In this document: in pieces, positions 51,913 through 64,000 of the stretch | How positions within the stretch are numbered: position 1 is the first letter of the stretch | Layout: every line of letters starts with the position of its first letter | Position numbers and translations under genes: made by a program | The notes under the pieces: generated by a model | Databases searched by the model: none | What the model saw: only the letters and a program-made list of their open reading frames with translations | Told to the model about the DNA's origin: nothing | Assembly: GCA_000697475.1 (NCBI GenBank) | Contig: JNEU01000836.1 | Location: forward strand, 186,001-250,000 | DNA length: 64,000 nucleotides | Source of the DNA: Lichtheimia corymbifera B2541 | Taxonomy: Eukaryota > Mucoromycota > Mucoromycetes > Mucorales > Lichtheimiaceae | Direction: 5' to 3'

Positions 51913-52216
51913 TTAATAGGTGGTAGAAGCCTTCTCACACACGCCGGTAACTAGGTTATAATAAGATGTCAGAGCATACAATGCAGCAATAACAACGAAA
52001 GAGCAATAACAACCTACAACCATTATAGTCACAATCATAGATCTCGTCACACTCAGACTCTCTCCTGGAATCGGAACATTGTTCTCCTGGAGTGAGATTC
52101 CTCACAGCGTTGGCTGTGGCAAGGATAGTGGCAAGAGCTAGTATAGCGAACTTTATTGAAAGTAGAGCGAGTTGATGTTGTTGATGTTGAGGGATGATAA
52201 TATCAATGCTGCTCAT
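51913..52216 (-). CDS. Small secreted four-cysteine protein, type B1 (start doubtful)
   Basis: Two exons (52216-52021, 51950-51913) are open for 77 residues. The sequence has a signal peptide (FAILALATILATANA) and a mature peptide of about 40 residues with Cys spacing C-x8-C-x5-C and a fourth Cys after the intron (VTGVCEK). Where the other copies start with ATG (SMKF), this copy has ATA (SIKF). The only in-frame ATG, at 52216, overlaps the TATA box (TATATAAATG) and so is unlikely to be in the mRNA. The donor, GTTGTA, is also weaker than in other copies. Either a start-loss pseudogene or a gene using another start. Confidence 0.6.
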
Positions 52217-52223
52217 TTATATA
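52214..52223 (-). promoter_or_regulatory. TATA box overlapping the B1 upstream ATG
   Basis: TATATAAATG on the minus strand. In the type A genes the same TATAAATGGG sequence is a TATA box about 65-80 bases before the real ATG. Confidence 0.55.
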
Positions 52224-52649
52224 CACTCTCTGCTTATTGGTAACCTTAACTTTATGATGAAATAATCTTGCCAACAGCATGTAACGCCGAAAATGATGAT
52301 CGCATTATCATATATGTACATTTGTGCTCTACGATATCCGAGAATACTACCCCTTCAAGGGCTTGGCCGTATTGAATCCAGGTGTAGATCTGCAAAAGCA
52401 CCTCCGGCAGGAGAAGATCTCATATCACGAGAATGATAAATAATGGATAACTTGTACCACATCAAACAAGCAATGTCGTTAATGGAATTCACGCATCATA
52501 AATGCACACGACAATACCAAGGTGAATGCTTTCTTTCATATGATGTATGCCCATCGCAGCGTATTAGGTGTTATGTATGTGCGATGATCAGCACCTGCTC
52601 AAATGGCGTAATTAACATTTTCCTCCATTTTTTATGTGTAGTTTGCATC

Positions 52650-52722
52650 TTAAATCGGGGTATGGTAGATTGGTTGTAGCAAGCATGGTATCCATGGCAA
52701 CGAGTAGCGCTGACTACTTCAT
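52650..52722 (-). pseudogene. Type B secreted-protein relic
   Basis: ATGAAG is followed directly by TAG at codon 3, then by the family signal-peptide sequence (GCGCTACTCGTTGCCATGG). Similarity ends before the cysteine region. Clearly dead. It lies 912 bases head to head from the A1 start, the same layout as in the other units. Confidence 0.7.
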
Positions 52723-53552
52723 TACAGGTATAATAAGCTAGTCTTGTTTCGTGTCGAAATGGATATCAATGTTGGCCGGTTTTATATACTCGCTGATTCC
52801 CAATGGCCTTTTCTTTTTAAATGAGAGGACGTTCTTCCACACTATGTAAAACCAATGGCAAAGAAGGTTTACTAGCGGTACATAGCATAGTAGGCCTCAG
52901 GGTATGCAAAAGCAAAAAGTCCTTCATAGTCAATGGGATGTCCGGATATTCACATACACCTTTTGAGAGAACGGCTATGCAATCCATACAACAAGTGTCG
53001 TTCTTCTTCATCATGATGGGTGAGCATCAACAAACATTGAACCCGCAACTCACAAAAATGGATGCGTTCTATTTGATATGTATTCGTACATAACGTATGC
53101 ATCGGATATGCCTGGGACGGCGAGAAGCCCATTGCAAATATATCACTTTCCCTTTGATTACTACTACGCCGCACAATATGTACATCAGAACATGGATCAA
53201 ACGCTAAATACGCCATCATTTAAAAAGACAAGCGTCCATCCTTCACGAATATCTGGGAACTTGTGATGAAGGATGAATCAAAGAGTGGGTACATCATTTG
53301 GCCTATATGTTTTATGGATGTGATCTATATCAATGCTTGTTGGCAGTAGTCAACTTGATGCATGGAAACGACAGCTGCATGCGGTTTCGCCTTCTTTTCT
53401 ACCCAGGGGGCGTGTCGTGCTTTGAAGCAGTTCTAGATTTTGTATGTGGTATGTTGCTATGTACATAACGTTGAACTTTCTCGATTGGCGTATTGTGGTA
53501 GAGTCTCATCTAAAAAGATAGAGGTACCGGGAAGACGATGTGAGCATATACA

Positions 53553-53559
53553 TATAAAT
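53553..53559 (+). promoter_or_regulatory. TATA box of gene A1
   Basis: TATAAAT 81 bases before the ATG at 53634, in a block conserved in all three A genes. Confidence 0.6.
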
Positions 53560-53633
53560 GGGAAATGTTGATACAATCTTTCACACACTACAACAACAGC
53601 ATACATATCATCATCCCGCTGCCGGCTCTTGCA

Positions 53634-53900
53634 ATGAAGTTCTCTGTTCTAGTCTTCGCCACTGCTGTATGTATTGCTACAGCGAACGCTATTAGAGGTT
53701 TCGATGTAGGAGAGAGCTGTACGGCTATCAAAGCACAAGCTACGTGTGAAGAGCGTGCATGTAGATGGGATGTCGGTAAGTTGCATCATCATCCCAAGTT
53801 GATTTGTTTTCATTGCAATCTGATGCCTTTGTGTATAGCTTCCAATGCCTGTACGCCGGTTCCTGGCGGTGGGAGATTGCGTAATGGAGTTGCTTTTTGA
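53634..53900 (+). CDS. Small secreted four-cysteine protein, type A1
   Basis: Two exons (53634-53775, 53839-53900) encode 67 residues. Signal peptide MKFSVLVFATAVCIATANA, then about 48 mature residues with four Cys: ESC, ATC, RAC before the intron and NAC after it. The start is fixed by the ATG that matches A2 and A3. The upstream in-frame ATG at 53565 lies just 5 bases after the TATA box. The intron (63 bases) is nearly identical to those of A2 and A3 while the mature peptide differs strongly. The likely role is an extracellular peptide such as an effector, defence or signalling peptide. No known family is recognised. Confidence 0.8.
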   Translation: MKFSVLVFATAVCIATANAIRGFDVGESCTAIKAQATCEERACRWDVGKLHHHPKLICFHCNLMPLCIASNACTPVPGGGRLRNGVAF

Positions 53901-53999
53901 TGATGGGCAATCCTAATCTTCGTCGTGTACTATATAGTAGCCTGCAATACATGTTATGTTGAATATTCAGCTTCATCGTTTACACAATATGTCTTCGAT

Positions 54000-61653: not shown

Positions 61654-61708
61654 TACAGCAGGTGTATGTAGCTTGTCTCGAGTGGAGATGGATGTCAGCG
61701 TTGGCCGG

Positions 61709-61717
61709 TTTTATATA
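61709..61717 (-). promoter_or_regulatory. TATA box of gene B4
   Basis: TATATAAAA about 56 bases before the ATG at 61653, followed by the CCGGCCAAC block also seen before B copies at 52.7 and 57.4 kb. Confidence 0.6.
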
Positions 61718-62463
61718 CTTTTTGCTTCTCGAGGATGACCTTGCCTTCGCAGATGAGAGAGTGTTCTGCCACAATAACGCCAAAGGCAAAAAAAAGGACT
61801 AACTACTTTATACAATTCCATGTGCAGAGTAGGAGGCTTCAAGATATGCAATAGCAAAGAGTCCTTCGAGAAACAGGTGGCATTGAATCTAAAGGTCATG
61901 ATACAGTACTCACATGCACATTGAACCCACAACTCAGAAAAATGGATGTGTTCTATTTGACATGTATTCGCCACATATCCATCGGGTATGCCCGGAACGA
62001 CGAAAAGTCCATTGCAAGGACACCAGTTTCCCCCCTGAATTACCACGCACAAGGTGCACATCAAAACATGCATCAAACGCTAATTACGCCCTGGCGCAAT
62101 CCATCCTTCCACACATATGTACCCAGGCACCTTTTGATGGAATATAATCAAAGAGCGGGTACCTCTTTGATAATTTCAAATGGCCTATACATGGTATATG
62201 AATCTGATTTATATCAATGGTTGTCGGCGGTGGTCAACTTTGATGCATGAAAACGACAGTTGCATGGGGTTTCGCCATCTTTTCCGGCCAGGGGTTGTGT
62301 TGTGTGCAGATCAGCATCCGGATTCAACGCCGCTTGTACCTTAAAGCAGTTCTTGCTTTTGTATGTGATGGGGTACAATGTTGGTCTTTCATGGTTAGCG
62401 TATTGTGGTAGAATCCTCAACTAAAAAGATAAGGTTACCCGGAGGAAGCTGTGAGCAAATACA

Positions 62464-62470
62464 TATAAAT
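62464..62470 (+). promoter_or_regulatory. TATA box of gene A3
   Basis: TATAAAT 69 bases before the ATG at 62533. Confidence 0.6.
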
Positions 62471-62532
62471 GGGCAACGTTGATACATATTCTTCCACACA
62501 CAACAACAACACATCATCCCACTGTACTTTCA

Positions 62533-62812
62533 ATGAAGTTCTCTGCTCTAGTCCTTGCCACTGCTGCCATTATCGCTACAGCGAACGCTGTTAAAGAGCT
62601 CGCCCCAAACGAAGTTTGTACGGATATCAAAACACAAGCTACGTGTGAAGAGTATTCAAATGAGTGTGAATGGGATCTTGGTAAGTTGCATCATTATCCC
62701 AAGTTGATTCGCTTTCATTGCAATCTGATGTCTTTTTTATGCAGGTTACAACCAATGTGATGATATTCCTCTTGATGATCCAGCACCGTTTGCTGAAGAA
62801 CCTCCTTATTGA
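62533..62812 (+). CDS. Small secreted four-cysteine protein, type A3
   Basis: Two exons (62533-62680, 62745-62812) encode 71 residues. Signal peptide MKFSALVLATAAIIATANA, mature part VKELAPNEVC with C-x8-C-x6-C-EWD and a fourth Cys after the intron (YNQC). The tail is acidic and Pro-rich (DDIPLDDPAPFAEEPPY), unlike A1 and A2, so the C-terminal exon diverges most. The unit that follows lacks the foldback arm and the C gene. Confidence 0.8.
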
Positions 62813-63194
62813 TGATGGGCATCCGCAACTTAGTCGTATGATATATAACCTGCCATGCATATTACGTTGAATGTTCAGATTTCATGGTGTACACAAGATA
62901 TTTTCGGATACACCCATAATCATTTTGCGAGCATTAATTATAAAACACTGAAATTTTATGATGATGCAGGATATACTTTGAATGGCTGTGCACTTGATGT
63001 GAATGCCATGATATTGTTGCTATGAACTGGGCAATGATGGGAATGATGGTTCGATAACAGAGTGTGTTTGCTTAAGGAAGGAGGAACTTTATTCATGCGT
63101 ATGGAATTGAAAACCAGAATCAGCTGTTTTATCAAATATATGTATTTAGCGATTCATAAGGAAACATGATCGAATGACATGGTATTCTGCAGCG

Positions 63195-63457
63195 TCATTG
63201 ATAGTTTTCAATAAAAAAACAGCCCTTCTTAGGAGCTAAATGTAAAGAGGAGCATTAATCAATCCAGTGAAAAAAACAAAAAAACAAAAAAACGTCTCGT
63301 ACCTGCAACATAAAAGCACTCGCTATACCCGTTGCATTCATCTGGGTTTGTGATATCGCCACATTTTTCTCCTTTAGGGAGATCCTTGTAAAAGCTGCTC
63401 GCATTGTGTAGCAAAGATGGTAGCCATGGCAACGAGTAGCGTGGATAACTTCATCAT
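63195..63457 (-). pseudogene. Type B5 secreted-protein pseudogene (2-base deletion)
   Basis: Begins with a doubled ATG, then the family signal peptide. At its end (ACACAATGCG, near 63402-63411) two bases are missing compared with the B4 copy, shifting the frame to an early TAA. The downstream cysteine region (GEKC, DEC, SEC) and the second exon (KKGCFF, acceptor TTTAG) are otherwise well preserved, so the loss looks recent. Confidence 0.75.
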
Positions 63458-64000
63458 TACAGATATAGCGAGCTAGTCTTGTTTCGTCGTGTCGCGTTGG
63501 ATACCAACGTTGACCGGTTTTACATATGTAGTTTTTACTTCCCAATGACTTTACGTTTTTACATTAGAAGGGTGTTCTGCTGCAATAACGCCAAAGGCCA
63601 AAAAGGGGGTTTACTACTTTATACAGTTCTATTTGTATAGTATGCTTCAGGATATGCAAAAGCAAAGAAACCCTCGAAAAAAAAGTGAGATCGAATTTAG
63701 ATGTCCTACAAGCACCTCTTAAAAGAATAGCTTTGTGACCCATAATACAACAGGCGTCGTCGTTCTTCGTCATGAGTGAGTATCGACAGAGATTGAATCC
63801 ACGGCTCATTAAAATGGATGCATTCTATTTGGTATGTATTCCACCGCCGTATGCATTAGACATGCCTTGAACGGCGAGAAGCCCATTGCAGGGACATCCC
63901 TTTCCGCTGCATTGTTAAGCACAATGTGTGTACATAAAAACATGCACCAAACGCCAATTCGCCAAGACGAGCATCCAGCCTTCCTCGCATATCCTGGCAC
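63458..64000. other. Start of a further array unit
   Basis: B-A spacer sequence of a further unit, recognisable by the CCGGTTTTACATAT block and the CATTGCAGGGACATCC block. The matching A gene would lie beyond the window end, near 64.3 kb if spacing is kept. Confidence 0.6.

What the first reader, a model, noticed from the sequence alone, without database searches (positions are those of the whole stretch)
51913..64000. Expanding family of tiny secreted four-cysteine proteins in tandem units
Seen: at least nine copies or relics of one gene family in 12 kb, each with a signal peptide, a C-x(7-9)-C-x(4-6)-C core and, where readable, a phase-1 intron before a fourth Cys. Three types (A, B, C) alternate on the two strands. 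Inference: a birth-and-death family of extracellular peptides (effector, defence, allorecognition or signalling). I do not recognise a known family.
Basis: partly seen in the sequence, partly recalled or inferred. Interest (0 to 1): 0.9.

Follow-up and report, generated by a model that had tools for sequence, protein, structure and literature searches.

The report
Fast-changing secreted mini-proteins of a mould
A Lichtheimia mould carries a scattered family of tiny secreted four-cysteine proteins whose gene switch, export signal and intron stay alike while the exported part changes unusually fast, a pattern known from venom peptides and arms-race effectors.

Summary
The genome is a Lichtheimia. 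Thirteen two-exon gene models on five contigs encode 58-75 aa precursors: signal peptide, then 36-56 aa with cysteines at C-x(7-8)-C-x(4-6)-C-x(8-10)-C and a phase-1 intron before Cys4; four are in the window, with relics. New here: between loci the signal peptide (69 of 69 pairs z>3), intron (60) and promoter (44) stay similar, while mature exon 1 (12) and exon 2 (1) do not. In nine of nine within-cluster pairs amino-acid-changing differences exceed promoter-plus-intron divergence 1.5-3.7-fold, though dN/dS is about 1 or less. A promoter module has 8 matches in 35 Mb, 7 upstream of family genes. The modelled fold resembles, weakly, the PSI core and the trypanosome VSG C-terminal domain. A profile search of 5.77 billion proteins returned six hits; the two that bear an organism name are Lichtheimia. 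Best reading: co-regulated secreted ligands diversified by selection, perhaps with exon-segment switching, in contact with other organisms. Target unknown; expression untested.

The parts
53634..53900 (+). Gene A1, 67 aa: exon 1 53634-53775, phase-1 intron 53776-53838, exon 2 53839-53900 with stop
   Evidence: 60-63% exon-1 match to A3, E=5.3e-11
58314..58590 (+). Gene A2, 69 aa: exon 1 58314-58458, intron 58459-58525, exon 2 58526-58590 with stop
   Evidence: E=2.2e-12 to A3
62533..62812 (+). Gene A3, 71 aa: exon 1 62533-62680, intron 62681-62744, exon 2 62745-62812 with stop
   Evidence: relative P0001 named L. corymbifera, 83%
56379..56620 (-). Gene C1, 60 aa: exon 1 56620-56479, intron 56478-56420, exon 2 56419-56379 with stop
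   Evidence: intron core shared with the A genes
61491..61653 (-). B3, open exon 1 with three Cys; no convincing exon 2
57275..57438 (-). B2 relic (two frames, stop)
63301..63405 (-). B4 relic (no signal peptide in the matching frame)
60792..60878 (-). C2 relic; its intron core remains at about 60746
51956..52216 (-). Family relic without ATG at the usual start; three Cys of the framework readable
52675..52747 (-). B1 remnant (signal-peptide part)
   Evidence: repeat family D8
58209..58248 (+). Promoter module of A2 (GATA-like site, GTTGCC, TATA)
62428..62468 (+). Promoter module of A3 (GATA-like site, GTTACC, TATA)
54287..56225 (.). Dispersed repeat, copy 1, carried in the tandem unit; not part of the peptide genes
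58967..60490 (.). Dispersed repeat, copy 2

Best explanation
A Lichtheimia family of secreted mini-proteins (13 two-exon gene models plus relics found). A typical gene has a family-specific promoter (GATA-like site, GTTACC, TATA; diverged or missing in some members), a conserved signal peptide, a hypervariable mature region of 36-56 aa and a conserved short phase-1 intron. Shown by sequence: gene structure, Cys framework, faster change of the mature exons than of intron and promoter, promoter specificity. Predicted: a two-disulfide helix-plus-hairpin scaffold like the PSI core or the trypanosome VSG C-terminal domain. Inferred: the peptides are exported, probably switched on together, and their variable surface binds changing molecules of other organisms (competitors, predators or hosts). 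Tandem duplication supplies copies; selection, with some exchange of exon segments among neighbours, diversifies them; losers decay to relics.
For: Gene models. Between loci z>3: signal peptide 69/69, intron 60/69, promoter 44/69, mature exon 1 12/69, exon 2 1/69; introns beat same-form control pseudo-introns after trimming, 28/69 against 2/112 and 3/150. pN above promoter-plus-intron divergence in 9 of 9 within-cluster pairs, one-sided Fisher 0.04 to 4e-9. In the same duplicated unit (2 against 3) B-A intergenic DNA is 719/847 and B exon 155/178 identical but A exon 1 111/145 and exon 2 29/63. Promoter pattern: 7 of 8 genome matches upstream of family genes. Exon and upstream histories disagree (41 of 62 against 1 of 14 sites, Fisher 5.9e-5); P0001 is A4-like at 5 then A3-like at 17 informative residues. 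Signal-peptide dN 0.03-0.25.
Against: dN/dS in the mature part is 0.66-1.15 for the six A pairs and 0.42-1.06 over the nine pairs after a second alignment (ratios from the dN and dS): no excess over synonymous change. Promoter and intron may themselves be constrained, which would make the yardstick too slow. Exon 1 alone, signal peptide included, is not less alike than the 5' flank in two of the six A pairs. The six A pairs are not independent. The partition test rests on 14 sites, 8 of them in exon 2, which was not codon-aligned. No conversion tract inside the gene was significant. No expression, secretion or target data; no partner gene was looked for.
Confidence: 0.5

Rival explanations
1. 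The peptides are signals or identity labels within the species (mating, hyphal recognition, crowding); diversity is kept by selection for different labels.
For: Secreted, small, disulfide framework, common promoter, mostly negative charge, net -12 to +1 in 13 models, tandem paralogues that differ in the mature part.
Against: Many unlinked copies rather than one polymorphic locus; no receptor gene was looked for; no strain polymorphism data.
Confidence: 0.22
2. Mutation or short segment exchange, rather than selection, makes the mature exons diverge: a local hypermutation or gene-conversion process keeps shuffling them.
For: Synonymous change is raised too: at codons for unchanged amino acids above non-coding divergence in 7 of 9 pairs, p<0.02 in 3. 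Mosaic signs. Exons differ more than the short intron between them.
Against: The other 6 pairs are not significant and 2 go the other way; signal-peptide exon parts keep low dN; run test not significant inside the gene; Cys codons differ in 0 of 35 comparisons.
Confidence: 0.13
3. Ordinary cell-wall or housekeeping mini-proteins under weak constraint, drifting apart, many already pseudogenes.
For: Relics are common in the window; dN/dS near 1 in the mature part.
Against: Drift should not exceed intron and intergenic divergence, yet pN does in 9 of 9 pairs; the four Cys are invariant in the 15 aligned members; reading frames stay open in 13 models.
Confidence: 0.12
4. Artefact: chance ORFs or pieces of the dispersed repeat.
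For: A dispersed repeat lies in two of the tandem units.
Against: The genes lie outside the repeat; C407, C251, C144 and C408, which carry family genes, are not among the places listed for the repeat query; strong own-genome and cross-species matches.
Confidence: 0.03

Closest known systems
Conotoxin gene superfamilies (PMC3862624, passages read)
   Same: The abstract says introns are conserved within a superfamily and that far more point changes fall in the mature-peptide exon; passages say signal peptides are highly conserved
   Different: Animal venom; most superfamilies have three exons with a propeptide; unrelated sequences; here no propeptide is evident and the intron lies inside the mature part
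Snake three-finger toxin genes with segment switching, ASSET (PMC2474615, passages read)
   Same: Introns and signal region alike, mature exon segments switched among paralogues
   Different: Different fold and organism; segment switching here is only suggested
PSI domain of plexins and semaphorins (PF01437)
   Same: Cys pattern with W after the third Cys; weak profile and fold match
   Different: Below the Pfam cut-off; stands alone, four Cys, in a secreted peptide
C-terminal domain of trypanosome variant surface glycoproteins
   Different: Part of large membrane-anchored coats; no sign of common ancestry
Licosin, Lichtheimia corymbifera defensin (PMC13199095, passages read)
   Same: Small secreted Cys peptide of the same genus
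   Different: Six Cys, CS-alpha-beta fold, gene without intron
HYP effectors of cyst nematodes (PMC11228951, search listing only)
   Same: Hypervariable part in an otherwise constant effector gene (abstract start and recall)
   Different: Single-gene loci with many alleles; plant parasite; unrelated

Membership tests
PSI domain (PF01437) | Score over the Pfam gathering cut-off (23.1 bits) | tested here: not met
   Best shown 17.7 bits for the C407a exon-1 peptide; 3 of 15 members match at E<=1, best E 5e-4 (no cut-offs printed); own-genome search 17.4 bits at C407
PSI domain (PF01437) | PSI fold | tested here: inconclusive
Paramecium surface antigen domain (PF01508) | Score over the cut-off (21.2 bits) | tested here: not met
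   14.9, 16.1 and 16.5 bits for A1, A2 and A3
Trypanosome VSG C-terminal domain | Significant profile match | tested here: inconclusive
   1 of 15 members at E 0.0011, cut-off not shown; PDB chains E 0.034-0.24
Trypanosome VSG C-terminal domain | Part of a large GPI-anchored surface coat protein (recalled) | tested here: not met
   Models are 58-75 aa with a signal peptide and no further domain
Fungal defensins (CS-alpha-beta) | Six or eight Cys | tested here: not met
   Four Cys in the mature part of 13 of 13 models
Fungal defensins (CS-alpha-beta) | Cationic | tested here: not met
   Net charge negative in 11 of 13 models, 0 in C251b, +1 in A1
Venom-like hypervariable gene pattern (works like, not membership) | Signal peptide and intron conserved, mature exon divergent | tested here: met
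Venom-like hypervariable gene pattern (works like, not membership) | Replacement rate above synonymous rate | tested here: not met
   A pairs 0.66-1.15; nine pairs 0.42-1.06
Venom-like hypervariable gene pattern (works like, not membership) | Activity on a foreign target | not testable with these tools
   No assay or expression data

The most novel reading that the evidence does not exclude
A mould keeps a co-regulated repertoire of secreted mini-proteins on a minimal PSI/VSG-like scaffold whose mature exons are diversified by a local mechanism (short segment switching or focal hypermutation, between a conserved promoter, signal region and intron): a fungal counterpart of venom-gene diversification.
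Probability: 0.2. Interest if true: 0.85.

Novelty: new variant of a known kind. Interest (0 to 1): 0.6.

Why it matters
Fast-evolving secreted peptide families are well studied in plant pathogens and venomous animals. Paper searches that combined Lichtheimia, Mucorales or fungal effectors with such terms did not show a description of this family in the rows I saw (20 of 70 listed, none; open-access library only). The promoter module gives a direct handle: it predicts one regulon, so one expression data set or deletion series could show when, and against whom, the peptides are used. Four separate paralogue groups with the same pattern also make a compact system for asking how exons can outrun the intron between them.

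Tried and rejected
Pfam on single peptides: nothing over a cut-off; on 15 members: weak PSI, Paramecium_SA and VSG matches. Rfam on 51500-64000 at E<=0.1: 0 matches. Dispersed repeat as a coding gene: six copies read by eye, no consistent long frame; three of its ORFs hit no Pfam family at E<=1. Promoter core with up to two mismatches: 80 matches against 61 for the reversed control, so uninformative at that level; at up to one mismatch 8 of 10 are family promoters, and the other two (C152, C369) precede no family-like ORF in the 700 bases fetched. Sawyer-type run test: no significant run inside the gene; over the wider stretch one of six pairs (u2-u4) has p=0.0075, just upstream of the gene. 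Second structure model (P0004 first) has pLDDT 60 and was not searched. PF01437 in the own genome: two matches, none over cut-off. Families not listed are not excluded. B3, C251a, C34 and C189 were not counted among the 13 models: B3 and C251a lack a convincing exon 2, C34 was not modelled further, and C189 gave a two-exon model with an odd C-terminus. C189 was dropped from the pair counts and from the between-locus pairs (its intron was among the 14 compared with controls there). C251a was used only for its upstream region. I did not look for receptors, immunity partners or other regulators.
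Full report
What is there. The A3 peptide finds P0001, named Lichtheimia corymbifera (83% identity), and P0004, named Lichtheimia ornata (62%), so the organism is a Lichtheimia; the species was not settled. In 51.9-64 kb I confirm three complete A genes on the + strand and one complete C gene on the - strand, one B copy with only exon 1 open, and relics. The order is: outermost relic, B1 remnant, A1, repeat, C1, B2, A2, repeat, C2, B3, A3, B4, then A4 just outside. The two repeat copies are 90-92% alike in their long blocks, and units 2 and 3 are 84-90% alike upstream of the A gene; the other unit pairs are 73-78% alike there.

Genome-wide family. Single-protein searches found further members on C407 (four), C251 (two), C144, C408 (two) and weaker candidates on C189 and C34; the tool calls such counts lower bounds. 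Thirteen two-exon models keep signal peptide, four Cys, a phase-1 intron of 56-68 nt and a short exon 2 with Cys4: five on C222, four on C407, one each on C251 and C144, two on C408. Cys spacing is 7-8 / 4-6 / 8-10. A second, longer secreted family on C90, C212, C132 and C279 carries a similar Cys pattern and was not pursued.

Relatives elsewhere. A profile of 15 members against 5.77 billion proteins gave six hits among 2,566 candidates at E<=10: one named L. corymbifera, one named L. ornata, one the window's own, and three from a source without organism names. The method needs shared five-residue words, so distant relatives may be missed.

The shell is conserved, the core is not. For the 13 genes I compared promoter (110 nt), signal peptide, mature exon 1, intron and exon 2 in all pairs. 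Between loci (69 pairs) the number with z>3 was: signal peptide 69, intron 60, promoter 44, mature exon 1 12, exon 2 1. Introns share splice signals anyway, so I compared them with 55 pseudo-introns of the same form taken from the held DNA: untrimmed 60/69 against 17/112 and 21/150; with splice ends removed 28/69 against 2/112 and 3/150. A core close to TTTCATTGCATCTGA recurs in family introns: 16 matches with up to two errors in 213,642 bases, 9 of them in family introns, the C2 relic among these (the pattern was drawn from the family).

Rates. In the four tandem A units, exons 1+2 together are less alike than the intron in all six pairs (Fisher 1.3e-5 to 0.074) and less alike than the 5' flank in all six (5.5e-7 to 0.32); exon 1 alone, signal peptide included, is not below the flank in two of the six. 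The duplicated unit 2/3 gives an internal yardstick: B-A intergenic 719/847, B exon 155/178, A intron 59/64, A exon 1 111/145, A exon 2 29/63. Over nine within-cluster pairs from four paralogue groups (A, C407ab, C407cd, C408), pN exceeds promoter-plus-intron divergence by 1.5-3.7 times, one-sided Fisher 0.04 to 4e-9. In signal peptides dN is 0.03-0.25. Against a simple positive-selection story, dN/dS in the mature part is 0.66-1.15 for the A pairs and 0.42-1.06 over the nine pairs by the dN and dS, because synonymous change is raised too. At codons for unchanged amino acids, synonymous differences exceed non-coding ones in seven of nine pairs, three at p<0.02; two pairs go the other way. Cys codons differ in 0 of 35 within-cluster comparisons, a weak observation because the pairs are related.

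Segment history. Upstream of the gene, two-against-two sites group units 2 and 3 in 41 of 62; within the gene in 1 of 14 (Fisher 5.9e-5). Eight of these 14 lie in exon 2, which was not codon-aligned, and repeated hits could mimic the effect. P0001 matches A4 at its first five informative mature residues and A3 at the next seventeen; one such break has probability 8e-5 if residues were exchangeable, which is generous. A run test found no significant tract inside the gene. I read this as suggestive of exon-segment exchange, not proof.

Promoter. Upstream of A2-A4, C407a,b, C251b and C408b lies a shared layout: GATAAG-RTTRCC, purine-rich stretch, TATA box, mostly a GTTGATATTC-like stretch, then the ATG. 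A1, C251a and C408a have diverged versions, C144 and C189 only part, and C1, C407c and C407d lack the first part (read by eye). The pattern GATAAGRTTRCCN{12,40}TATAW has 8 matches in 35 Mb, 7 upstream of family genes and one at C404; the reversed control has 3. The pattern was drawn from the family, so its hits there are by construction; the point is that it marks almost nothing else. That a GATA factor binds it is inference.

Function. Predicted secretion, a Cys scaffold, replacement change above the non-coding rate, tandem turnover and a common promoter are what one expects of peptides that meet changing targets outside the cell. Mostly negative charge argues against a defensin-type killer. 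I therefore favour interaction with other organisms, at 0.5; signalling within the species is the main rival. The L. corymbifera genome paper (PMC4133162, abstract, outline and passages seen) reports many tandem duplications and differing expression of tandem copies; the passages I saw do not mention this family. Whether any copy is transcribed remains unknown here.

Noticed in passing
window 54287-56225 and about 58967-60490: Dispersed repeat of about 1.5-1.9 kb with internal subrepeats around ATGCTGATCAACTCC; 103 matching pieces from 40 scored of 1,091 first-look candidates, 66-82% alike outside the cluster. No consistent long frame in six copies. Nature unknown.
   Followed up: partly
L049 (C90), L050 (C212); also C132:16451, C279:5814 and C279:9106: A longer secreted family with a signal peptide, a three-Cys exon, a GTATGT intron and a second part with a similar Cys-Trp or Cys-Phe motif.
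   Followed up: no
introns of A1-A4 (window 53776-53838, 58459-58525, 62681-62744; L040): Short introns 81-92% alike, mostly more than the 5' flank (intron against flank p<0.05 in one of six pairs); a core is shared with C1, C407a and C408 introns. A regulatory role is possible.
   Followed up: partly
G000:C356:115655-115741: Best PSI-domain match of the genome, 22.4 bits, just under the Pfam cut-off, in a 186 aa open frame.
   Followed up: no
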